Shown here one piece after another: positions 16,071 through 26,837 of a stretch of 36,501 nt of DNA. Position 1 is the stretch's first letter. The number at the start of each line of letters is the position of its first letter. The stretch is taken from the NCBI GenBank assembly GCA_009885795.1, contig VFKA01000022.1, positions 1-36,501 on the forward strand, read 5' to 3'. Under the pieces are notes generated by a model. That model saw only the letters and a program-made list of their open reading frames with translations. It was not told the DNA's origin and did not search any database. The translations under genes and the position numbers were made by a program. Origin of the DNA: Rhodospirillales bacterium (GTDB lineage: Bacteria; Pseudomonadota; Alphaproteobacteria; Dongiales; Dongiaceae).

Positions 16071-17015
16071 ATGCCGAAGGATGAAAATCCGGTCGATCCG
16101 ACCGCGATACGGCTCGAGGCGTCGTCGTTCTGTCAACTGAGGTGCCCCTCCTGTCCCACCGCGACGAGGGCGATCGAGAAGCACGTCGGGTACGGTTTCC
16201 TGACGTTCGAGAATTTCAAGAAGCTCGTGGATGAAAATCCCCAACTACGACAGATCGAACTGTCGAATTATGGGGAAATCTTCCTAAATCCGCACCTTAA
16301 GAAGATCTTCGAGCATGCCTTCGAGAAAAAAGTCCATCTCACGGCGTTCAATGGCGTGAATCTCAATCACGCGAAAGAGGACGTCTTGGAGAGCCTGGTC
16401 GAGTTTCAGGTCAGGGGCTTGACGGTATCCTTGGATGGGGCGTCCCAGGAGAGTTACGAAAAATACCGAGTCAAGGGTAATTTTAGGAATGCGATCAAGA
16501 ACATCGAAACCATCAATCGATGGAAGAAAAAATACAACTCCATCTATCCGAAAATGAACTGGCAGTTCGTGGCGTTCGGGCACAACGAACACGAAATAGA
16601 CGAGGCGGAGCGGCTGGCGGGACGGTTGGGCATGAGTTTCCACCTGAAACTTTCCTGGGATGACGATCTTTCGCCCATCGAGGACAGGGAGGCCCTGACA
16701 AAGCGATTGGGATATTCGTCGAGGAAGGAATATCGTCGGAAGACGGGCCGAGTTTACCTCGACACCATATGCAACCAGCTTTGGAAGATTCCTCAGATCA
16801 ATTGGGATGGAGCGGTGCTGGGTTGCTGCAGGAATTATTGGGGAAATTTCGGCGGCAATGCGTTCACGGATGGATTGCTACAGGCCATCAACAACCCGAA
16901 GATCCGCTATGCGAGGGCCATGCTGCTCGGGCGGGTTCCGCCCCGGGAGGACATACCCTGCGTCACGTGCGAGATTTACCAAGCAAGGCGGCCGGCATCG
17001 GAGGGTAGTTCGTAA
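16071..17015 (+). CDS. Radical SAM protein with SPASM-like C-terminus
   Basis: The 314-residue product has the radical SAM cluster motif CxxxCxxC (Cys21, Cys25, Cys28) near the N-terminus, GGE-like NYGEIF around residues 66-71 and SLDGAS at 120-125. Further cysteines at 234, 252-253 and 297/300 suggest a SPASM-type auxiliary Fe-S site. Enzymes of this kind cleave S-adenosylmethionine to start radical chemistry; the substrate cannot be told. The DNA is clearly richer in A and T than its neighbours (runs such as GAAAAAAG and AATTTTAGG), suggesting transfer. No precursor-peptide gene is visible nearby. Its 3' end overlaps the convergent gene by 53 bases. Confidence 0.85.
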   Translation: MPKDENPVDPTAIRLEASSFCQLRCPSCPTATRAIEKHVGYGFLTFENFKKLVDENPQLRQIELSNYGEIFLNPHLKKIFEHAFEKKVHLTAFNGVNLNHAKEDVLESLVEFQVRGLTVSLDGASQESYEKYRVKGNFRNAIKNIETINRWKKKYNSIYPKMNWQFVAFGHNEHEIDEAERLAGRLGMSFHLKLSWDDDLSPIEDREALTKRLGYSSRKEYRRKTGRVYLDTICNQLWKIPQINWDGAVLGCCRNYWGNFGGNAFTDGLLQAINNPKIRYARAMLLGRVPPREDIPCVTCEIYQARRPASEGSS

Positions 17016-18723
17016 TACCAACGGCCGTAAGTGCCGACTCATGCGACACGCCGACGCGTTTCCCCTCGCCCCGACCCTCTCCCGCAAGGGGAGAGGGAGG
17101 CATGTGTGATCCCCGAAATTCCTCCGCGAGGGGCGAACCGTCGCGGATTTCGATCAGCGTCGGCACATCGCGTGACGTCGACGCCGCGAGGTCGTTCCTG
17201 AATTCGTCAATGCCGGCCGGCCGCGACGCCGCGCACCCCATGGCCCTGCCGAGCGCCACGAGATCGGGCGTGAAGAGATCGACGCCAATGCGCGGTATGC
17301 CGCGCTCCTTCATGAAGGTCTTGATCTCGCCATAGCTCGAATTGTTCCACACGACGATCGCGGCGGCGATCCCGGCTTCGACGGCGGAGGCCAGTTCCTG
17401 AAGCGAGAATTGCAGGCCGCCATCGCCGATCAGGCAAACGACAGGCCGTTCGGGCGCGCCAAGCTTGGCGCCGAATGCGGCCGGAAGCCCATAGCCCAGC
17501 GTGCCGTACCCGGTGCTCGAATTGAAATAGGAGCGTGGACGCGGCGACTGGTGGAACTGATTGGCGGCATAGACCGGCTCGGTCTGGTCGCCGGCGACAA
17601 TGGCCTCCGGCAACACCGACATGACGGCCGCCATCAGGGCGCGGTGTGTCGCGCAGGCCGGCCACAGGCCGCGATCGACGCGGTCACGAATTTCGGCCGC
17701 GCGGGCGGAGCCATCGCGGGTGGCTGGCGAGCCCATGGCCTTCAGCGCCGCGAGAATCGCCGCGCCGGCAAGCCGTGAATCGGCCGTGATGGCGAGGGCC
17801 GAAGGAAGCGCGGTGGTGAGCTGCAAGGGATCGATGTCGATGCGGATGAGGGCGCCGTTGATGGCGATCGGGCGCGGTTCCGGATACATTTCGGTTTCGC
17901 CGAATTCGGTTCCGATAGCGAGAATCACATCGCTTGCCGCGAGTTCGTCGCGCAAAGGGGTCATGCCGAGATTGCCGGAGAGCGCCAGCTTGTGACCAGG
18001 CGGTAGAATACCCTTGCCATTGATCGTCATGAACACCGGTGCATCGAGATGTTCGGCGATGGCGCGAACCTCCGCCGCGGCATCGGCCGCGCCGCCGCCG
18101 GCGACGATCAGCGGCCGGCGCGCGCCGGCGAGATGGTTCGCGGCCGCGCGGGTCGCCTCGGGCGATGGCGCCGGCCGGGTGGGCAAGGCCCAGGCTTTCG
18201 CGGGCATATCCACCATCTCCGCCACGATGATATCGAGGGGAATCTCGATATGGACGGGCCGCGGCCTCTGGCCGGCGAAAACGGCGAAGGCGCAGGCGAG
18301 GATACCCGGAAGCTGCCGGGCGTCGAGCAAGGTATGGCTGAACGCGGCGACACCGGAGACGAGATTCTGCTGCGAGCGCAGTTCATGCAAGCGCCCTTGT
18401 TGCATGCCAAGCTGGTCGCGCGCGTTGACCGCGGAGATCACCAGCATCGGAATCGAATCGGCGAAAGCCTGGCCCATGGCCGTGGCGATGTTGGTCATGC
18501 CCGGACCGGTAACGATGAAACATACGCCGGGCTTTCCCGTCACCCGCGCATACCCGTCGGCCATGAAACCCGCACCCTGCTCGTGCCGCGGCGTGATGTG
18601 GCGGATGCGGGTCTCCGGCAGGCCGCGATAAAGCTCCACCGTATGAACACCGGGAATCCCGAAGATCAGCTCGATGCCATAGGCCTCAAGCAGTTTGACC
18701 AGAATTTCGCCGCATGTCGCCAT
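16963..18723 (-). CDS. Thiamine-diphosphate enzyme, acetolactate-synthase-like (AruI-type 2-oxoacid decarboxylase)
   Basis: The 586-residue product has the three TPP-enzyme domains. The catalytic Glu48 lies in PRHEQGAGFMADGYAR, and the TPP/Mg motif runs from GDGG (433-436) to NN (460-461). The N-terminus (GIPGVHTVELYRGLPETRIRHITPRHEQ) resembles 5-guanidino-2-oxopentanoate decarboxylase (AruI) of arginine catabolism more than biosynthetic IlvB, and no IlvN small subunit is adjacent; the AruI assignment is from memory. Residues after about 537 (including PPSPLAGEGRGEG) come from a dispersed repeat, so the native enzyme probably ended near residue 536. It is divergent from the dehydrogenase gene. 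GGAG lies upstream of its ATG. Confidence 0.8.
   Translation of the reverse strand: MATCGEILVKLLEAYGIELIFGIPGVHTVELYRGLPETRIRHITPRHEQGAGFMADGYARVTGKPGVCFIVTGPGMTNIATAMGQAFADSIPMLVISAVNARDQLGMQQGRLHELRSQQNLVSGVAAFSHTLLDARQLPGILACAFAVFAGQRPRPVHIEIPLDIIVAEMVDMPAKAWALPTRPAPSPEATRAAANHLAGARRPLIVAGGGAADAAAEVRAIAEHLDAPVFMTINGKGILPPGHKLALSGNLGMTPLRDELAASDVILAIGTEFGETEMYPEPRPIAINGALIRIDIDPLQLTTALPSALAITADSRLAGAAILAALKAMGSPATRDGSARAAEIRDRVDRGLWPACATHRALMAAVMSVLPEAIVAGDQTEPVYAANQFHQSPRPRSYFNSSTGYGTLGYGLPAAFGAKLGAPERPVVCLIGDGGLQFSLQELASAVEAGIAAAIVVWNNSSYGEIKTFMKERGIPRIGVDLFTPDLVALGRAMGCAASRPAGIDEFRNDLAASTSRDVPTLIEIRDGSPLAEEFRGSHMPPSPLAGEGRGEGKRVGVSHESALTAVGITNYPPMPAALLGKSRT
17055..17105. repeat. Dispersed CTCTCCC/GGGAGAG hairpin in the end of the TPP-enzyme gene
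   Basis: CCCTCTCCC followed by GCAA and GGGGAGAGGG makes a strong stem at about 17078-17099. Read on the minus strand it encodes PPSPLAGEGRGEG, a well-known translation of a repeat found between genes in many proteobacteria. Here it lies inside the reading frame of the minus-strand enzyme and between two convergent genes, where it may act as a bidirectional transcription barrier. Confidence 0.8.
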
Positions 18724-20111: not shown

Positions 20112-20125
20112 TTGATCTAGATCAA
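20112..20125. promoter_or_regulatory. FNR/FixK/DNR-type operator
   Basis: TTGATCTAGATCAA is a perfect match to the symmetric consensus TTGAT-N4-ATCAA bound by Crp/Fnr-family regulators of the FNR, FixK and DNR groups. Its centre at 20118.5 is 41.5 bases upstream of a start site predicted at 20160 from the CATTAT -10 element (20147-20152), exactly the class-II activator position. This predicts activation of the downstream cluster under low oxygen or by nitric oxide. Which regulator binds cannot be told from the site. Confidence 0.8.
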
Positions 20126-20183: not shown

Positions 20184-20357
20184 GTGGCCGAACAGCCGAA
20201 AACGGATAGTCCGGCGGCGCCGCTTGAACGAATTCCTTTCATGCAGCGGGTTCTCGACAACCCATTCCTGCTGCTGTTCGCCGGCGTCGTGGTTCCGGCG
20301 GTCATCTATATCCTCTGGGGTGTGATGGAGATCTCCCAGATTCCCTTGGTGAAATAG
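20184..20357 (+). CDS. Small one-helix membrane peptide, possible subunit IIa of the heme-copper enzyme
   Basis: With GTG 20184 as start (GGGGAGG five bases upstream) the product has 57 residues. A soluble N-terminus (AEQPKTDSPAAPLERIPFM) precedes one transmembrane helix (PFLLLFAGVVVPAVIYILWGVM). An upstream ATG at 20163 would add seven residues but has no ribosome-binding site and lies almost at the predicted transcript start. It is the first gene of the cluster, eight bases before the CuA subunit gene. Thermus ba3 oxidase has a one-helix subunit IIa, so this may be the counterpart; that rests on size, topology and position only. Confidence 0.7.
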   Translation: MAEQPKTDSPAAPLERIPFMQRVLDNPFLLLFAGVVVPAVIYILWGVMEISQIPLVK

Positions 20358-20365
20358 GGGCCACG

Positions 20366-20920
20366 ATGGCAATTCATCCTCCGCAGTCTCGCGTCTGGTG
20401 GAAAGAGCCGATCGCCAAAGCCGAACTGGTCTGGATCGGCGTCGCCTTTCTCTGGGGCCTCATCATGTTCTTCATGATGATCTACTGGCACATCTACGGG
20501 CAGCAGAACCTGTCGACGCAAGTGGGCCGTATCGATCCCGCCGTCTTCGAACAACGCACCAACGACTTCGCCGAGAAATTCAAGGTCCGTGAAGAAGGCG
20601 ACACCGGTATTCCCGTGGTGAAGCCGCCGGCGGGCGGCGATGCCTATATGCTGGCTCGCACCTATGAATGGTGGCCGGTCCTCGAGCTGGAAAAGGGCAA
20701 GTCCTACAAGTTGCATATATCCTCTCTCGACCTGCAGCATGGATTTTCGCTGCAACCCATCAACATGAACATCCAGGTGCATCCGGGCCTCGAGCACGTC
20801 GTCACCATCACGCCGACCGAAGCTGGAATCTATGGCGTCGTCTGCAACGAATATTGCGGCCTCGGCCATCACGTGATGACCGGGCGCATTTACGTCGTCG
20901 ATTCCGGACAGGGGGGCTGA
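20366..20920 (+). CDS. Heme-copper enzyme subunit II, CuA domain (ba3/NorS-like)
   Basis: The 184-residue protein has a single N-terminal membrane helix (LVWIGVAFLWGLIMFFMMIYW) and a periplasmic cupredoxin domain. The full CuA ligand set is present: His125, Cys160, Glu162 (carbonyl ligand), Cys164, His168 and Met171 in CNEYCGLGHHVM. One helix and short length fit B-family (ba3-type) subunit II rather than two-helix aa3 CoxB. It would accept electrons from a cytochrome c or cupredoxin and pass them to subunit I, whose gene starts one base after its stop. In sNOR clusters the equivalent gene is called norS; I leave the symbol blank. Confidence 0.9.
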   Translation: MAIHPPQSRVWWKEPIAKAELVWIGVAFLWGLIMFFMMIYWHIYGQQNLSTQVGRIDPAVFEQRTNDFAEKFKVREEGDTGIPVVKPPAGGDAYMLARTYEWWPVLELEKGKSYKLHISSLDLQHGFSLQPINMNIQVHPGLEHVVTITPTEAGIYGVVCNEYCGLGHHVMTGRIYVVDSGQGG

Positions 20921-20921
20921 G

Positions 20922-22664
20922 ATGACCACGGCTGTTGCCGAAACCGGCATGATCGGAGCATTGGCCACGAAATTCCGCATCTGCCCGGCGACCGGCTTGA
21001 GAGTCGATCTTGCCGCCGAGCGCCTGATCAAGGCCAACGCGGTGGCCGCCGTCGTATTCCTGGCCATCGGAGGCGGATTTGGCCTGCTCGTCGCGCTGAC
21101 CCGCTGGCCCGCCGTCCATCTCCTGTCGTCGGACCTGTTCTACCTCGCGCTGACGGCACATGGCCTCGACGTGCTTCTGATGTGGATCATTTTTTTCGAA
21201 ATGGCGGTGCTGTACTTCGCTTCCGCCGTCATCCTCAGCAGCCGCATCGCGGCGCCCCGATGGGGATGGGTCGGTTTCGTCCTGATGATCGTGGGCGCGC
21301 TGATGACCAATGTCGCGGTGCTGCAGGGCGACTCGAGCGTGATGTTCACGTCCTACGTGCCGATGCAGGCGCGACCGCATTTTTATCTCGGACTGATCCT
21401 TTTCGCGGTGGGCGCGCTCATCGGCTGCTTCATCTTTCTCGGCACGCTGGTGATCGCCAAGGAAGAGAAGACCTATGAGGGGTCGATCCCTCTCGTCACC
21501 TTCGGCGCGTTGACCGCTTGCATCATCGCGGTCTTCACCATTGCCTCGGGAGCCATCATCCTGATCCCGACGTTCCTCTGGTCGGTCGGCTATATCGGTC
21601 ACATCGACTCGTTGATGTACAAGTTGGTGTGGTGGGCCATGGGCCACTCTTCGCAACAGATCAACGTCTCGGCCCATGTGGCGATCTGGTATCTGATCGC
21701 GGCGGTAACCGTCGGCGCCAAGCCGCTTTCCGAGAAAGTCAGCCGCACCGCCTTCCTGCTCTACATCCTCTTCCTGCAGCTCGCGGCGGCGCATCATATG
21801 CTTGTCGAACCGGGTCTCAGCTCGGAGTGGAAGATCGTGAATACGTCCTATATGATGTATCTTGCGGTATTGGGCAGCATGATCCACGGCATGACCGTGC
21901 CGGGATCGATCGAGGCGGCGCAGCGCAAGAGCGGCTTCACCCGCGGCGTGTTCGAATGGCTGCGCAAGGCGCCGTGGGGAAATCCGGCCTTCGCCGGCAT
22001 GTTCCTATCGCTGGTGATGTTCGGATTCCTTGGCGGTATTTCGGGCGTCGTGTTGGGCACGGAACAGCTCAACATCATGATGCACAACACGCTCTATGTG
22101 CCGGGGCATTTCCACGCCACGGTGGTCGCGGGAACGACGCTCGCCTTCATGGCGGTCACTTATCTCGTCGTGCCGCTCATCTTCCAACGAGAAATCGTCT
22201 GGCCGAAACTGGCGAAGATCCAGCCCTATCTCTTTGGCATCGGAGCCTCCGGTATCTCGCTTTTCATGATGGGTGCCGGCACCCTCGGGGTGGCGCGGCG
22301 GCATTGGGACATCACATTTCCAGCCTTGGACGTGACGCTTCCCTACGGCTACTCGCCCGCGGCGTCCTTGATGATGGGCTTGAACGGCCTGTCGGCCATT
22401 CTCGCGGCAACGGGCGGCGTACTCTACGTTGCCATCGTCGTGGCCAGCATCCTGTTCGGCAAGAAGGTCGATGCCAGCAACGCCGTGGCCGCGCTTGGCC
22501 CGATGCCGAAGAAGGTCGTGCACGACGCGGTGGCCAAGTACGGCGATGCGGGTACCTGGCACCTTCCCGGCACTTATGTTCTGGTCGGCCTCTTCTTCAC
22601 GACCTTCATTCTCTACTACTTCGTGAACTGGAAATATCTGTCCGAACTCTGGCCGATGCAGTGA
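20922..22664 (+). CDS. Heme-copper oxidoreductase subunit I, B-family, lacking the active-site Tyr (putative NO reductase, NorY-like)
   Basis: The 580-residue integral membrane protein has about 13 hydrophobic segments. It aligns well with Thermus ba3 subunit I across HHMLVEPG, WLRKAPWGNPAF and HNTLYVPGHFH. Ligands: His80 and His398 for the low-spin heme, His396 for the high-spin heme, and His242, His291 and His292 for CuB. Oxygen-reducing B-family enzymes have GHPxVY, with Tyr four residues after the first CuB His and covalently linked to it. Here the motif is GHSSQQ, so Gln246 stands there. Loss of this Tyr is a feature of NO-reducing branches of the superfamily. NO reductase is therefore my preferred call, an atypical oxidase the alternative. 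GGGGGG precedes the ATG. Confidence 0.85.
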   Translation: MTTAVAETGMIGALATKFRICPATGLRVDLAAERLIKANAVAAVVFLAIGGGFGLLVALTRWPAVHLLSSDLFYLALTAHGLDVLLMWIIFFEMAVLYFASAVILSSRIAAPRWGWVGFVLMIVGALMTNVAVLQGDSSVMFTSYVPMQARPHFYLGLILFAVGALIGCFIFLGTLVIAKEEKTYEGSIPLVTFGALTACIIAVFTIASGAIILIPTFLWSVGYIGHIDSLMYKLVWWAMGHSSQQINVSAHVAIWYLIAAVTVGAKPLSEKVSRTAFLLYILFLQLAAAHHMLVEPGLSSEWKIVNTSYMMYLAVLGSMIHGMTVPGSIEAAQRKSGFTRGVFEWLRKAPWGNPAFAGMFLSLVMFGFLGGISGVVLGTEQLNIMMHNTLYVPGHFHATVVAGTTLAFMAVTYLVVPLIFQREIVWPKLAKIQPYLFGIGASGISLFMMGAGTLGVARRHWDITFPALDVTLPYGYSPAASLMMGLNGLSAILAATGGVLYVAIVVASILFGKKVDASNAVAALGPMPKKVVHDAVAKYGDAGTWHLPGTYVLVGLFFTTFILYYFVNWKYLSELWPMQ

Positions 22665-22676
22665 GGCGTTGAGACG

Positions 22677-23561
22677 ATGGCCGCGGTCGCCACCGTTCCG
22701 TCGATCAAGGATGTGTTGTCGATCTTCAAGTTGAGGATCGGGGTCGCCATCATGATGAGCGCGCTCGGTGGCGTGGCGATTACGCCCGGCGTCATGCCCG
22801 ATCCTTGGCGGGTTACCATCCTCGCCTTCGCGGTGTTTCTTGCTTCCGCGAGCGCCGGCGCCTTCAACCAGTGGGCCGAGGCCGATCTCGACCGCCAAAT
22901 GAAGCGCACCGCCTCGCGGCCCTTCGCGTCGGGCCGCCTTCGGGCGGGTGGCCCATGGCTCACGGCAATCCTAGGGCTCCTGACAATCGCCGTTATCATG
23001 GCGGCATGGGCGGCCAATTGGTGGGCCGCTTTCCACACCTTCATGGGCGCTTTCGTCTACGGCATCGTCTACACCATGTGGCTGAAACGCCGCAGCTGGA
23101 CCAACATTATCGTCGGCGGGCTGGCCGGCAGCTTTGCCGTGCTGGCTGGCGCCGCCGCCGTTCATCCCGGCTGGCAGGCGGAACCGCTCATCCTCTCGCT
23201 CGTGCTGTTCCTTTGGACACCGCCGCATTTCTGGAGTTTGGCGATCGCCGCCCACGACGATTATGCCTCGGCCGGCGTTCCCATGTTGCCCGTGGTCTCC
23301 GGCGACGCACTGACCGCCAAGGTCATCCTGGCCCACACCCTGGCGCTTGCCGCCCTGTCGCTGCTGCCGGCCCTGTGGTCCATGGGCCCGATTTACCTAG
23401 CCGGCGCCGTGTCGGGCGGCGCGGTCTTCGTTTGGACCAGCATCAGGCTCGCGCTGGCGCCCTCGCGCAAGCGGGCGATCCGGAATTTCCTGGCCTCGCT
23501 CCTGCAACTCGTGCTGTTACTGTCGGGAATGGTCGCGGATCGTATCATCGGATCCTTCTGA
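22677..23561 (+). CDS. ctaB: Protoheme IX farnesyltransferase (heme O synthase)
   Basis: CtaB/CyoE attaches farnesyl to heme B to make heme O. The 294-residue product is a UbiA-family membrane prenyltransferase with about eight helices. The first Asp-rich motif is NQWAEADLDRQMKRTASRP (from residue 64, with Asp70 and Asp72). The second region has WTPPHFWSLAIAAHDDYASAGVPMLPV, typical of heme O synthases. Its place in the cluster suggests that subunit I carries heme O or A. No heme A synthase (CtaA) is encoded here. Its TGA overlaps the next ATG by one base. Confidence 0.93.
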   Translation: MAAVATVPSIKDVLSIFKLRIGVAIMMSALGGVAITPGVMPDPWRVTILAFAVFLASASAGAFNQWAEADLDRQMKRTASRPFASGRLRAGGPWLTAILGLLTIAVIMAAWAANWWAAFHTFMGAFVYGIVYTMWLKRRSWTNIIVGGLAGSFAVLAGAAAVHPGWQAEPLILSLVLFLWTPPHFWSLAIAAHDDYASAGVPMLPVVSGDALTAKVILAHTLALAALSLLPALWSMGPIYLAGAVSGGAVFVWTSIRLALAPSRKRAIRNFLASLLQLVLLLSGMVADRIIGSF

Positions 23562-24352
23562 TGTGGCGCCTCGTCATCGCGGTCGCCTGCCTCGCGATCG
23601 GGTTGTCATCCCTTGCCATGGCCGACGCGCGCACCGACGCGGCCTTGGCGGTCTCGCAAGGCGCCATCGGCACGAGCGTTCCCGATCTCGCATTCCGGGA
23701 TGCCGAGGGAAACAGGATCAACCTCGCCGATCTGCGTGGCAAGCCGCTGGTCATTACGTTGATCTATACGAGCTGTTCCGAATTGTGCCCCACGATCGTC
23801 GAAAGCCTCGCGGCCGGCGTCGAGACAGCCGAAGACATTCTTGGCGCCGGAAGTTTCAATGTTCTCACCATCGGCTTCGACATCCGCAACGACACGCCGG
23901 ATCGCATGCGCTCGTTCGCTCGCGCTCACAATGCCGGCGGCGACAACTGGTTCTTCGCCGGCTCCGACGAGGCAACCATGGAGCGTCTCGGCGCGGCGGT
24001 CGGTTTCAGCTTCTTTTCCTCCGCCGGCGGCTTCGACCACATGGCCCAGGTGACCGTCCTCGACAAAACCGGCACGATCTACCAGCAGGTCTACGGCAGC
24101 ACGTTCGCGCCCCCGGCTATTGTCGAGCCACTGAAGCAGTTGATCCTCGGCGGCGAGCGTTCGATTTTTTCTCTGGCCGGCCTCGGCGACCGGGTGAGGC
24201 TATTCTGCACGGCCTTCGATCCCAACACCGGCCGCTACTATTTCGACTACTCGCTGCTCGTGGCGATCTTCGTGGGCGCCGGTTGCCTTGTTGGCATACT
24301 CGTCTTCCTGATCCGCGAGACACGAAAATCGCTGCGAAGCAAAGGCGTCTGA
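23561..24352 (+). CDS. SCO1/SenC copper-delivery protein with extra C-terminal membrane anchor
   Basis: SCO proteins load copper into CuA. The 263-residue product has a signal or anchor sequence (residues 1-22), a thioredoxin-like domain with the copper/thiol motif Cys72-x3-Cys76 (SCSELCP) and the distal ligand His160 (GGFDHMAQV). Unusually, after RVRLFCTAFDPNTGRYYFDY there is a second membrane helix (about residues 231-251, LLVAIFVGAGCLVGILVFLI) and a basic end. It probably matures the CuA site of the adjacent subunit II. sNOR clusters of ammonia oxidisers also contain a senC gene, as I recall. Confidence 0.9.
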   Translation: MWRLVIAVACLAIGLSSLAMADARTDAALAVSQGAIGTSVPDLAFRDAEGNRINLADLRGKPLVITLIYTSCSELCPTIVESLAAGVETAEDILGAGSFNVLTIGFDIRNDTPDRMRSFARAHNAGGDNWFFAGSDEATMERLGAAVGFSFFSSAGGFDHMAQVTVLDKTGTIYQQVYGSTFAPPAIVEPLKQLILGGERSIFSLAGLGDRVRLFCTAFDPNTGRYYFDYSLLVAIFVGAGCLVGILVFLIRETRKSLRSKGV

Positions 24353-24356
24353 GCCC

Positions 24357-25934
24357 ATGGGCCTGCTGAAGCGGTCGCTTCGCGCCTGTTTCGACTCTGG
24401 CGAACGATTTCTCGCGCTGGCATTCCCGCCGGACTGGAATCCCTTGCTCAATCTCGGAGCACTCGGATTCTTCTTCTACTGGATCGTGACCGTCAGCGGC
24501 ATCTACGTATACATCTTCCTCGACACCGGCGTCACCCAGGCTTTCGCGTCGGTCGAATACATGACCGGCGAGCAATGGTACGCGGCGGGTCTCATGCGAA
24601 GCCTGCACCGCTATGCGTCCGACGGCCTTGTGGCGGTCATGCTGCTCCACATGCTGCGTGAATTCGCGCTCGACCGTTTTCGCGGCGTGCGCTGGTTCGG
24701 CTGGGCGACCGGCATCGCCGTGCTGTTGCTCGTCACCATCGCCGGAATCAGCGGTTACTGGCTGGTCTGGGACAGGCTCGCCCAATACGTGGCGATCGTC
24801 TCGACCGAATGGCTGGACCATCTTCCCTTTTTCGGACAGCCCATCGCGCGCAACTTCCTGTCGCCGGAGACGCTCGACAGCCGCTTTTTCACGCTGATGA
24901 TCTTCATGCACATCGCGGTTCCGTTGATCGCGCTCGTCGGCTTGTGGCTGCATCTGCAGCGCGTCACCAAGCCGCGGATCAATCCGCCGATGGGGCTGGC
25001 CGTTGGCGCCGGATTGTCGTTGCTCATGCTCTCGGCCGTGCATCCGGCCACGAGTCAGGGCGCGGCGAACCTCGCCCAGGTTCCAGGCAGCGTCGGCCTC
25101 GACTGGTTTTATCTTGGCGCCTATCCCCTGCTTGAAACGTTTTCCGGCGAGGTGACATGGAGCGCGGCCTTGGCGCTCCTCGTCATCATGGGGGCGATCC
25201 CCTGGCTTCCGCCCATGAAGCGGCAGAGGCCTGCCGCGGTCGATCTCGCCAATTGCAATGGTTGCGCCCGCTGCATGAACGACTGCCCCTACAGCGCCAT
25301 AACCATGCAAGCGCGAAGCGATGGCCGGCCCTTCGAGGGCGAAGCCGTCGTCGATCCCGATCTCTGTGTCGCGTGCGGAATCTGCGCGGGGTCCTGCCCG
25401 ACATCGACGCCGTTCCGCCGCCTATCCGACCTCGTACCCGGCATCGACCTTCCGGACCGCTCCATCGCCGCGATCCGCGCCGACGCGGATGCGGAGGGCG
25501 CCCGCATCGCCGGCCCGGCCCGCATCATGGTCTTCGGCTGCATCAACGCCGGCGTCGCGGCAGCCTGCCGCGCGGCCGATGTCGGAGTCGTTTCGCTCAA
25601 CTGTACCGGGCAATTGCCGCCGTCCTTCATCGACTATGTCATCAGCCGCAAGTTGGCCGATGGCGTGCTCATCGCGGGTTGCAGAGAGAACGGCTGCCAT
25701 AACAGGTTTGGCGCCAGATGGACCGCGGACCGGCTGGCGGGCGAGCGCGATCCATACCTCAGGGCCCGTGTGCCGCGCGCGAGGGTCGTCACCTTGTGGG
25801 CCGGCAGGCTGGGCGGCGCCGGCTTGCGTCGCGAGATCGCCGCGCTGGCAACGCGCCTGGCGTTGCTTGGGCCCTTCAAACCGAAGTCGCCTTTCGGCCG
25901 CGCCGTGGCGCAAGGAGAGAGGGCCGATGCCTAG
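24357..25934 (+). CDS. Cytochrome b / 2x[4Fe-4S] ferredoxin / MvhD-like fusion protein
   Basis: This 525-residue fusion has three parts. Residues 1-285 resemble cytochrome b/b6, with paired heme ligands His84/His98 and His185/His199 and about five or six helices. Residues 296-350 are a bacterial two-cluster ferredoxin (CNGCARCMNDCP, Cys300-303-306-310; CVACGICAGSCP, Cys337-340-343-347). Residues 388-455 resemble the delta subunit of methyl-viologen-reducing hydrogenase (MvhD), with cysteines 395, 416, 442 and 447 suited to a [2Fe-2S] cluster. It probably moves electrons between the quinone pool and a soluble donor or the neighbouring enzyme; direction and partner are unknown. It starts four bases after the SCO gene. 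Confidence 0.88.
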   Translation: MGLLKRSLRACFDSGERFLALAFPPDWNPLLNLGALGFFFYWIVTVSGIYVYIFLDTGVTQAFASVEYMTGEQWYAAGLMRSLHRYASDGLVAVMLLHMLREFALDRFRGVRWFGWATGIAVLLLVTIAGISGYWLVWDRLAQYVAIVSTEWLDHLPFFGQPIARNFLSPETLDSRFFTLMIFMHIAVPLIALVGLWLHLQRVTKPRINPPMGLAVGAGLSLLMLSAVHPATSQGAANLAQVPGSVGLDWFYLGAYPLLETFSGEVTWSAALALLVIMGAIPWLPPMKRQRPAAVDLANCNGCARCMNDCPYSAITMQARSDGRPFEGEAVVDPDLCVACGICAGSCPTSTPFRRLSDLVPGIDLPDRSIAAIRADADAEGARIAGPARIMVFGCINAGVAAACRAADVGVVSLNCTGQLPPSFIDYVISRKLADGVLIAGCRENGCHNRFGARWTADRLAGERDPYLRARVPRARVVTLWAGRLGGAGLRREIAALATRLALLGPFKPKSPFGRAVAQGERADA

Positions 25935-26430
25935 CGTCGCGAGATATGCCGGGCAGATCCTGTTCCATGCCGGGTTTGCCGCCGCTATCGGAACCTTCGC
26001 ATCCTGGCCCATGTACAACCGGATGCCGGAGGGCTCGGCGCAAATCAAGCTTTCCTTCAACCACGGCGGTAGGCGCGTGGAGGATTGCCGCAGGCTCACG
26101 GCGGAGGAACTCTCGAAGCTGCCGAGCAACCAGCGGCGGCCCATCGACTGTTCGCGCGAACGCCTGCCGGTCACCATCCAGCTCTTGATCGACGGAGCGC
26201 CGATCTACGAAGCGGTGCTGAAACCCGGCGGCATTGCCGGCGACGGACAGGCGCGGGCCTATGAGAAATTCATCGTCCCCGCGGGAACGCATCTGATCGA
26301 AGCGCGGCTGCGCGACAGCAAGCGGAGCGAGGGATTCGATTATCGGAGCAGATTCGAGGCGGCGTTGGCGCCAGGGCAGAATCTCGCCATCGACTTCAAG
26401 GCCGAACAAGGCGGCTTCCTCTTCAGGTAG
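25927..26430 (+). CDS. Unknown membrane-anchored periplasmic protein
   Basis: I do not recognise this 167-residue product. It has one N-terminal hydrophobic segment (about residues 9-28, GQILFHAGFAAAIGTFASWP), then a soluble beta-rich part with two cysteines (Cys54, Cys75) and sequences such as PVTIQLLIDGAPIYEAVLKP and VPAGTHLIEARLRDS. These read like an immunoglobulin-like or carboxypeptidase-regulatory-like fold, on appearance only. The start overlaps the end of the cytochrome b fusion gene by eight bases, so it is translationally coupled and belongs to the cluster. It may be an accessory or assembly factor. Confidence 0.75.
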   Translation: MPSVARYAGQILFHAGFAAAIGTFASWPMYNRMPEGSAQIKLSFNHGGRRVEDCRRLTAEELSKLPSNQRRPIDCSRERLPVTIQLLIDGAPIYEAVLKPGGIAGDGQARAYEKFIVPAGTHLIEARLRDSKRSEGFDYRSRFEAALAPGQNLAIDFKAEQGGFLFR

Positions 26431-26438
26431 CGAATCGC

Positions 26439-26837
26439 ATGACCCTCATCGAATGGCGCAAGGAATTCGAAACCGGCATTCCCGGCGTCGATCACGAACA
26501 CCGGGAACTCGTCGATGTCATCAACCGTCTGCACGGGCATATGGCGGGCGGGGTGGATCGGACCCGCGTCACCGAGTTCCTCGGCGAGGTCTTCGCCCGG
26601 ATCGCCGCTCATTTCGCGCTCGAGGAATCCATCATGCGCAAGCACGCCTACGACGAATACGAAGCCCACAAGACCGAACATGAACAACTGCTTGACGAGA
26701 TCCGGGACATCATGGACGCGCAACAGGGTCTTCCGCCGCCGGACTATGGAGACAGCCTGTCATCCGCGGTGCGGGACTGGTTCGTGAACCACTTCAAATC
26801 GAAGGACGCCCGGCTGCACAAGAAACTGGGCGTGTGA
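26439..26837 (+). CDS. Bacteriohemerythrin
   Basis: This 132-residue four-helix protein has the complete di-iron ligand set: His21 (DHEHREL), His58 and Glu62 (HFALEES), His77 and His81 (HKTEHEQ), His118 and Asp123 (HFKSKD). Hemerythrins bind O2 reversibly and some bind or turn over NO. It is the last gene of the FNR-box cluster, eight bases after the unknown gene, so it probably supplies, buffers or senses O2 or NO for the enzyme. The length is that of single-domain bacterial forms. Confidence 0.93.
   Translation: MTLIEWRKEFETGIPGVDHEHRELVDVINRLHGHMAGGVDRTRVTEFLGEVFARIAAHFALEESIMRKHAYDEYEAHKTEHEQLLDEIRDIMDAQQGLPPPDYGDSLSSAVRDWFVNHFKSKDARLHKKLGV

What the first reader, a model, noticed from the sequence alone, without database searches (positions are those of the whole stretch)
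24357..25934. Cytochrome b / two-cluster ferredoxin / MvhD-like triple fusion inside a heme-copper cluster
Four heme-ligand-like His, eight ferredoxin Cys and four MvhD-type Cys are all intact in one 525-residue chain. MvhD domains normally relay electrons in hydrogenase/heterodisulfide reductase complexes. A membrane-bound version fused to a b-type cytochrome and placed with a CuA-type terminal enzyme suggests an unusual electron route (quinol or low-potential soluble donor to the terminal enzyme), or a redox switch. The combination may define a new respiratory module.
Basis: partly seen in the sequence, partly recalled or inferred. Interest (0 to 1): 0.85.

Follow-up and report, generated by a model that had tools for sequence, protein, structure and literature searches.

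The report
Conserved redox partner of eNOR denitrification enzyme
A membrane protein that joins a cytochrome b, two iron-sulfur clusters and a hydrogenase-type iron-sulfur domain turns out to be a near-constant companion of a little-known nitric oxide reductase (eNOR) in bacteria that make nitric oxide from nitrite, so it probably wires that enzyme's denitrification to the cell's quinone pool and interior.

Summary
One intact 525-aa ORF carries cytochrome b (6 TM), 2[4Fe-4S] ferredoxin and FlpD/MvhD domains. In 105 non-redundant homologs, 14 of 16 ligands are invariant and two are 104/105. The neighbouring subunit I has Gln, not Tyr, at the catalytic position in 107/107 homologs. By a published key this is eNOR (ba3-a1), a known NO-reductase family, so the enzyme is not new.

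The partner looks new. I found no description of it, though the main eNOR paper was not readable. Fusion and eNOR co-occur almost perfectly: 23 of 23 alphaproteobacterial and 30 of 31 pseudomonadotal eNOR genomes sampled carry it, even where the genes are unlinked. All 40 positive genomes tested encode NirS (36) or NirK (exactly the other 4, this genome included). Only 7 have cNOR or qNOR. The operon has an FNR/NNR-like box. In two genomes eNOR's small subunit is fused to NirS.

Best reading: a dedicated, Rieske-less, quinone-linked transmembrane conduit beside eNOR. It keeps a Qo-like site, lacks canonical Qi/heme-ci ligands, and exits through the cytoplasmic Fe-S arm. Coupling to eNOR is strongly supported. 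Direction of flow and the soluble partner are inferred and unknown. NO-driven quinol bifurcation is not excluded.

The parts
20112..20125 (.). FNR/NNR/DNR-type box TTGATCTAGATCAA, 59-72 bp upstream of the first operon gene
   Evidence: Only exact TTGAT-N4-ATCAA in the window; 0.02 expected. Upstream of the operon in 99 loci, 44% carry a 9/10 or better match against 3% of random pieces.
20184..20357 (+). 57-aa single-TM small subunit (GTG start)
   Evidence: Conserved immediately upstream of CuA subunit II in nearly all loci. In L069 and L075 its homolog is the N-terminal anchor of NirS and no separate copy is found.
20366..20920 (+). CuA-type subunit II (184 aa); CuA motif CNEYCGLGHHVM
   Evidence: PF00116 above cut-off; CoxB 1e-13, below its cut-off.
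20922..22664 (+). Heme-copper subunit I, eNOR type: CuB His 242/291/292, heme His 80/396/398, Gln246 in place of the cross-linked Tyr
   Evidence: PF00115 1e-63. All these residues are invariant in 107 operon homologs. Closest solved relatives are B-type ba3 oxidases.
22677..23561 (+). CtaB/CyoE heme o synthase
   Evidence: TIGR01473 258 bits against cut-off 210.
23561..24352 (+). SCO1/SenC copper chaperone
   Evidence: PF02630 9e-11.
24357..25934 (+). Cytochrome b / 2[4Fe-4S] / MvhD fusion, 525 aa (the finding)
24426..25223 (+). Cytochrome b part (residues 24-289, six TM helices, two bis-His b hemes)
   Evidence: Superposes on cytochrome b of complex III: 254 residues at 2.3 A, Z 24.8 (9ftz_H). 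H84, H98, H185, H199 invariant in 105/105.
25098..25112 (+). Qo-type motif LDWFY (residues 248-252), aligned with PEWY of bc1
   Evidence: D249 and W250 invariant, Y252 103/105; alignment with bc1 PEWY.
25233..25409 (+). Two-cluster ferredoxin domain (residues 293-351)
   Evidence: Fer4_7 and Fer4_10 above cut-off; eight Cys invariant.
25539..25871 (+). FlpD/MvhD domain (residues 395-505), four Cys
   Evidence: PF02662 35 bits against cut-off 22.3. Earlier model matches MvhD 5odc_D; profile hits to MvhD chains 9sw2_D and 5odc_D.
25927..26430 (+). 167-aa protein, probable N-terminal anchor plus periplasmic domain, conserved Cys54 and Cys75
   Evidence: No Pfam, NCBIfam or PDB match. Directly downstream of the fusion in 141 of 145 loci, including loci detached from eNOR.
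26439..26837 (+). Bacteriohemerythrin
   Evidence: NF033749 102 bits, above cut-off. Present at this place in most alpha loci, not found in the L218-L237 loci.

Best explanation
The fusion is a dedicated, Rieske-less cytochrome b electron conduit that works beside eNOR in nitrite-to-N2O denitrification. Quinol (or quinone) is handled at a Qo-like pocket on the periplasmic face. Electrons pass between the two b hemes across the membrane and through two [4Fe-4S] clusters and the MvhD [2Fe-2S] cluster to a soluble cytoplasmic partner not yet identified. The Qi route of a normal bc complex is replaced by this Fe-S arm. eNOR, fed by cytochrome c through CuA, removes the NO made by NirS or NirK. Shown here by sequence or computation: domain set and ligands, topology by fold, near-obligate pairing with eNOR, and pairing of eNOR genomes with NO-forming nitrite reductases. 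Inferred: occupancy of the cofactor sites, quinone binding, direction (quinol to cytoplasm preferred), the soluble partner, and physical contact with eNOR. Estimated probability of functional coupling to eNOR/denitrification: about 0.9; of the stated direction: about 0.5.
For: Ligands conserved. High-confidence model with a cytochrome b fold through helix F. Qo-type elements kept: GYWLVWD, and D249/W250 at the PEWY position. The bc1 Qi Lys/Asp stretch is absent and the b6 heme-ci Cys aligns with Asn32. Co-occurrence with eNOR: phylum sample 30 both / 1 eNOR only / 4 fusion only / 363 neither; class sample 23/0/2/360. It persists where genes are unlinked. NirS or NirK in 40/40 positive genomes; cNOR or qNOR in 7/40; 14 genomes have Nir plus NosZ but no other NOR found. 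FNR-type boxes. NnrS, Nir and NosR-like neighbours. NirS fused to the eNOR small subunit.
Against: No cofactor, activity or interaction was measured. Operon membership could also mean an assembly role, since CtaB and SCO sit beside it. Thermus and Thermomicrobium plasmid loci carry the 44-45% related enzyme without the fusion nearby, so the catalytic core can probably work without it. No soluble partner gene recurs in the cluster. A bc-type cytochrome b is present anyway. UQH2 to a low-potential cytoplasmic acceptor would be uphill unless it is driven.
Confidence: 0.5

Rival explanations
1. Reverse conduit: a cytoplasmic low-potential donor (ferredoxin, or NADPH through an unknown flavoprotein) docks on MvhD. 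Electrons run outward through the clusters and b hemes to quinone, CuA or a periplasmic carrier, giving eNOR a second electron supply for NO removal.
For: MvhD in Hdr complexes is an electron-input domain (PMC9012536). N-to-P electron flow is downhill with a proton-motive force (established knowledge). Near-obligate pairing with eNOR.
Against: No donor gene recurs in the cluster; no flavin domain in the fusion; cytochrome c supply through bc1 is probably available.
Confidence: 0.2
2. NO-powered quinol bifurcation without a Rieske protein: at the Qo-like site one electron goes to a high-potential acceptor (CuA of eNOR or a cytochrome c) and the other through bL and bH and the Fe-S arm to a low-potential cytoplasmic acceptor.
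For: Qo kept and canonical Qi ligands lost. Cytoplasmic Fe-S arm fused directly after helix F. Anammox Rieske/cytochrome b complexes with a NAD(P) oxidoreductase are proposed to do the same with nitrite reduction as the drive (PMC12954380).
Against: No Rieske protein and no known mobile one-electron acceptor in the operon. PEWY Glu is replaced by Asp. Ubiquinol potential makes ferredoxin-level reduction hard.
Confidence: 0.15
3. Assembly or repair factor, or redox switch: the protein supplies electrons for maturation of eNOR (heme or copper sites) or for the adjacent hemerythrin, or senses NO through its clusters.
For: It sits beside CtaB and SCO; its 167-aa partner and the hemerythrin follow.
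Against: In several gammaproteobacteria the fusion and the 167-aa gene stay together away from CtaB/SCO. The hemerythrin is not in the L218-L237 loci. Full retention of a two-heme, Qo-type cytochrome b is more than a maturation reductase needs.
Confidence: 0.12
4. Passenger: linkage to eNOR is hitch-hiking in a denitrification island without a functional tie.
For: Shared horizontal transfer could make part of the pattern; one copy lies on a Defluviimonas plasmid.
Against: Co-occurrence survives unlinking. All metal ligands are kept in 105 homologs down to 40% identity.
Confidence: 0.03

Closest known systems
eNOR (B-family-related NO reductase, also called ba3-a1); PMC8756737 and PMC8879329, citing Hemp and Gennis 2008 and Hemp, Murali et al.
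   Same: Subunit I with Gln at the Tyr position; cupredoxin subunit II directly upstream; found with nirS and without cNOR or qNOR.
   Different: Published descriptions that I could read mention subunits I and II only; none mentions the cytochrome b/Fe-S/MvhD fusion, the 167-aa protein or the hemerythrin.
Cytochrome b of bc1/b6f complexes
   Same: Fold through helix F, four His ligands, conserved Gly pairs, Qo-type motifs.
   Different: No Rieske or cytochrome c1/f gene in the operon; Asp-Trp replaces Glu-Trp of PEWY; bc1 Qi residues and heme-ci Cys not aligned; a cytoplasmic Fe-S arm replaces the C-terminal part.
Anammox Rieske/cytochrome b complexes Kustd1480-1485 and Kuste4569-4574 (PMC12954380)
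   Same: Cytochrome b tied to a cytoplasmic redox module and to a nitrogen-oxide reduction; Qn site unclear.
   Different: They have Rieske and multiheme cytochrome c subunits and a flavin NAD(P) oxidoreductase; here a single chain carries 2[4Fe-4S]+MvhD and no flavin.
C-terminal ferredoxin-MvhD part of HdrA2 (NF040770), and MvhD of Hdr/Mvh (5odc)
   Same: Same domain order Fer4x2-MvhD; four MvhD Cys.
   Different: No HdrA flavin core and no Hdr or hydrogenase genes nearby; attached to a membrane cytochrome b instead.
ExtP/ExtQ b-type cytochromes (selenite/tellurite reduction operon)
   Same: ExtP is the best NCBIfam match of the cytochrome b part (96 bits); ExtQ also matches (23 bits).
   Different: Far below their cut-offs (290 and 150); different operon and no Fe-S fusion in those models.
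Bacillus qCuANOR type I (bNOR/sNOR; PMC3475470)
   Same: Small membrane peptide, CuA subunit II, subunit I and SenC/SCO in a row; NO reductase.
   Different: Asn, not Gln, at the Tyr position; a six-TM protein follows instead of the Fe-S fusion.

Membership tests
eNOR | Gln replaces the cross-linked active-site Tyr of subunit I | tested here: met
   Gln246 (and Gln245) invariant in 107 homologs, and in the Thermus and Thermomicrobium relatives; key in PMC8756737 Table A4.
eNOR | Heme-copper ligand set kept and relation to B-family (ba3) enzymes | tested here: met
   His 80, 242, 291, 292, 396, 398 invariant; best PDB hits are B-type oxidases.
eNOR | Cupredoxin subunit II adjacent to subunit I | tested here: met
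   PF00116; the two genes abut.
eNOR | NO reductase activity | not testable with these tools
   Indirect support only.
eNOR | Clusters with reference eNOR sequences in a tree | not tested
   Reference sequences and Murali et al. are not held.
sNOR / bNOR (CuANOR) | Asn at the Tyr position | tested here: not met
   Gln in 107/107; Asn per PMC8756737 Table A4 and PMC3475470.
B-family oxygen reductase | Cross-linked Tyr present | tested here: not met
cNOR / qNOR | NorB-type subunit with Glu at the active site | tested here: not met
   Gln at the site; the NorB query finds no match in this genome at E 1e-10.
bc1/b6f cytochrome b | Two bis-His b hemes and cytochrome b fold | tested here: met
   (ligand residues and fold; heme itself not shown).
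bc1/b6f cytochrome b | PEWY Qo motif | tested here: inconclusive
   Aligned as LDWFY with D249/W250 invariant.
bc1/b6f complex | Rieske protein and cytochrome c1/f encoded with it | tested here: not met
   Neither in the operon nor among the recurrent neighbours.
MvhD/FlpD domain | Pfam model above cut-off and four Cys | tested here: met
Hdr/hydrogenase electron-bifurcating complex | HdrA flavin core or hydrogenase partners | tested here: not met
   HdrA2 model 66 bits against 1100, Fer4-MvhD end only; no such genes in the operon.
ExtP | NF040969 cut-off (290 bits) | tested here: not met
   95.8 bits.

The most novel reading that the evidence does not exclude
eNOR and this fusion form one complex that bifurcates quinol electrons without a Rieske protein: CuA of eNOR takes the high-potential electron, and NO reduction pushes the other through the b hemes and Fe-S/MvhD arm to a low-potential cytoplasmic acceptor. 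In some lineages NirS is tethered to the same complex through the shared small subunit.
Probability: 0.13. Interest if true: 0.92.

Novelty: new variant of a known kind. Interest (0 to 1): 0.66.

Why it matters
eNOR genes are usually annotated as oxygen-consuming oxidases (the plasmid copy reads 'cbb3-type cytochrome c oxidase subunit I'), so the denitrifiers studied here look as if they made NO with no means of removing it. In this sample 33 of 40 nitrite-reducing genomes have no cNOR or qNOR but do have this operon. The fusion gives a specific marker for the proteobacterial eNOR system. It also raises a directly testable question: does NO respiration here have an extra, energy-coupling link between the quinone pool and the cytoplasm? 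Since eNOR makes N2O, the answer bears on greenhouse-gas budgets.

Tried and rejected
sNOR identity was my first guess (small subunit, CuA, SenC order as in Bacillus and nitrifiers); rejected because Gln, not Asn, occupies the Tyr position. O2-reducing ba3 oxidase: rejected for lack of Tyr and because NO-forming reductases are present in every genome tested. A direct tie of the fusion to NirS or heme d1 synthesis: rejected because this genome and three others have NirK and no NirS yet keep the operon. Replacement of bc1: disfavoured, as 39/40 positive genomes have a bc-type cytochrome b C-terminal domain. First AlphaFold run (21 sequences) was too weak to use (pLDDT 70.6). The Foldseek and VIA lists are filled by cytochrome b, so nothing is concluded from them about the Fe-S arm. 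The 167-aa protein: no match in Pfam, NCBIfam or PDB sequences.

Full report
**Observation.** The ORF at 24357-25934 (+) is intact and encodes 525 residues. Pfam places Cytochrome_B at residues 24-202, a dicluster ferredoxin at about 293-350 and FlpD (MvhD) at 397-505, each above its curated cut-off. It holds the only FlpD hit in the genome. I collected homologs and made a non-redundant set of 105. His 84, 98, 185 and 199, the eight ferredoxin Cys, and Cys 395 and 416 are invariant; Cys 442 and 447 are each present in 104 of 105. An AlphaFold2 model on this alignment has pLDDT 92.5 and pTM 0.89. Residues 25-289 superpose on cytochrome b of complex III (for example 254 residues, 2.3 A, Z 24.8). 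The ferredoxin and MvhD parts match Hdr/Mvh proteins by profile.

**Surroundings.** The operon reads: small 57-aa TM protein (20184-20357), CuA subunit II (20366-20920), heme-copper subunit I (20922-22664), CtaB (22677-23561), SCO (23561-24352), the fusion, a 167-aa protein with an apparent N-terminal anchor (25927-26430) and a bacteriohemerythrin (26439-26837). A perfect TTGATCTAGATCAA (FNR/NNR/DNR type) lies at 20112-20125, 0.02 expected by chance. In 99 loci, 44% have a 9/10 or better match upstream of the operon against 3% of random pieces of the same loci. The genes further out in the window that I scanned are housekeeping or metabolic ones.

**What the heme-copper enzyme is.** Subunit I has the three CuB His (242, 291, 292) and the heme His (80, 396, 398), all invariant in 107 operon homologs. 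The residue that should be the cross-linked Tyr is Gln246 in all of them, and in Thermus and Thermomicrobium relatives at 44-45% identity. Table A4 of PMC8756737, modified from Hemp and Gennis 2008, gives Gln as the mark of eNOR, Asn of sNOR and CuANOR, Asp of gNOR and Glu of cNOR/qNOR. PMC8879329 reports that the alphaproteobacterial subtype ba3-a1 was renamed eNOR after NO-reductase activity was found, with cytochrome c as donor. The closest solved structures are B-type ba3 oxidases. I therefore file the enzyme as eNOR by sequence; activity and tree placement were not tested here.

**Co-occurrence.** In 385 alphaproteobacterial genomes, 23 carry this subunit I (E <= 1e-60, 69% identity or more) and all 23 carry the fusion. 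Two more have fusion matches, one of them a fragment; on the contig stretches fetched for these two, subunit I is not found. In 398 genomes drawn from the phylum, 31 have subunit I and 34 have the fusion; 30 have both. The single eNOR-only case lies on a short contig and the four fusion-only cases are mostly incomplete draft genomes. Four genomes with an ordinary 27-28% identical relative of subunit I lack the fusion. Fisher p is about 1e-39 and 5e-35; genomes are related, so these p-values overstate independence, but the positive set tested later spans 26 genera among its better genomes. A wider scan found at least 583 relatives. The best 80, in alpha- and gammaproteobacteria, show the same gene order wherever the contig is long enough. 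In several gammaproteobacterial genomes the fusion is detached from the eNOR operon (on another contig, or well over 10 kb away) yet still present. There the pair fusion + 167-aa gene usually sits close to nirS. The 167-aa gene directly follows the fusion in 141 of 145 loci. It is therefore the constant partner of the fusion.

**Link to NO.** Of 40 genomes with both genes, 36 encode full-length cytochrome cd1 NirS and the other four, including this one (G000:C25:92929-93822), encode NirK above the curated cut-off. The comparison set of 40 genomes without the operon has no NirS at full length and 7 NirK. That set was chosen by hand from the genomes listed, so it is a yardstick rather than a random sample. 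Only 7 of the 40 have a cNOR (5) or qNOR-type protein (2). Fourteen have NosZ plus a nitrite reductase but neither cNOR nor qNOR. eNOR is then the only NO reductase I could find in most of these genomes. Recurrent neighbours include NirN/NirS, NirJ, NirD/L-type proteins, a tetrapyrrole methylase, NnrS, a Crp/Fnr regulator, ApbE and a NosR-like protein. In two genomes the eNOR small subunit is the N-terminal anchor of NirS and no separate small gene is found in those loci, which suggests a physical link between NO formation and NO removal. On Thermus plasmids the related enzyme lies near nirS or a multicopper oxidase gene, with an Rrf2-type regulator.

**How the fusion may work.** Six long helices, the fold match and the position of the Fe-S domains after the last helix put the Fe-S arm on the cytoplasmic side, by homology with bc complexes. 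Qo-type elements are kept: the GYWLVWD stretch and an invariant Asp-Trp where bc1 has Glu-Trp of PEWY. The bc1 Qi stretch with its Lys/Asp does not align, and the heme-ci Cys of b6 aligns with Asn32. The simplest reading is a periplasmic-side quinone site, two b hemes, then two [4Fe-4S] clusters and a [2Fe-2S] cluster leading to a soluble partner. No Rieske, cytochrome c1, flavoprotein, hydrogenase or Hdr gene recurs nearby. A bc-type cytochrome b C-terminal domain is present in 39 of 40 genomes, so the fusion is an addition to bc1 and not its replacement. I prefer quinol-to-cytoplasm flow because the Qo side is the conserved one. The opposite direction and Rieske-less bifurcation driven by NO reduction remain open. 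The closest proposal in the literature is the anammox Rieske/cytochrome b complexes with a NAD(P) oxidoreductase (PMC12954380). Cofactors, direction and partner are inferred.

**Against what is known.** The enzyme is known (eNOR). Searches of the held library for eNOR together with cytochrome b, hemerythrin or MvhD found no description of this partner. The main eNOR paper is not held, so prior mention cannot be excluded. The plasmid record names its copy only 'cytochrome b N-terminal domain-containing protein'. Published transcript data for Ca. Accumulibacter describe an FNR-linked 'ba3 oxidase', high in the anaerobic phase in one strain, in genomes that often have nirS but lack a known nor gene (PMC6446978). 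This may be the same system, but I did not test it.

**Verdict.** Observation confirmed; interpretation partly supported. New variant of a known kind: a known NO reductase with a previously undescribed (as far as I could search), near-obligate transmembrane redox partner.

Noticed in passing
L069:2405-4300 (-) and L075:13068-14954 (+): Cytochrome cd1 NirS carries the eNOR small TM subunit as its N-terminal anchor and no separate small gene is found in these loci: nitrite reductase apparently tethered to eNOR.
   Followed up: yes
L228:1624-3057 (-), L237:11490-12869 (+), L287:466-1908 (-), L234:15939-17327 (-): A 459-480 aa divergent COX1-like protein (PF00115 about 1e-11 in the two scanned, no NCBIfam hit) next to or near the fusion in some gammaproteobacteria; CuB ligands look incomplete in part of them. 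Function unknown.
   Followed up: partly
L237:7629-10943, L287:2371-5735, L288:1970-5077, L289:491-3697: In one family (f188) the fusion occurs as two tandem copies, about 43% identical to the window protein.
   Followed up: partly
window 25927-26430 and its homologs: The 167-aa protein has no known family, yet two Cys (54, 75) and several Arg/His/Asp are nearly invariant; it may be a periplasmic subunit of the fusion.
   Followed up: partly
G000:C25:92929-93822: The window's genome has a NirK in a 602-aa open frame, longer than usual NirK, perhaps fused to another domain.
   Followed up: no
L217:3796-10668 and L216:5858-10665: Thermus thermophilus plasmids carry Gln-type subunit I and II near nirS or a multicopper oxidase gene, an Rrf2 regulator and (L216) a DUF542 protein: eNOR-like modules without the fusion nearby.
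   Followed up: partly
literature, PMC6446978: The FNR-regulated 'ba3 oxidase' of Ca. Accumulibacter, in strains with nirS but no norZ/norBC, could be misnamed eNOR.
   Followed up: no
window 16963-18723 (-): Thiamine-diphosphate enzyme matching 5-guanidino-2-oxopentanoate decarboxylase (734 bits against cut-off 500), upstream of the eNOR operon on the other strand.
   Followed up: no
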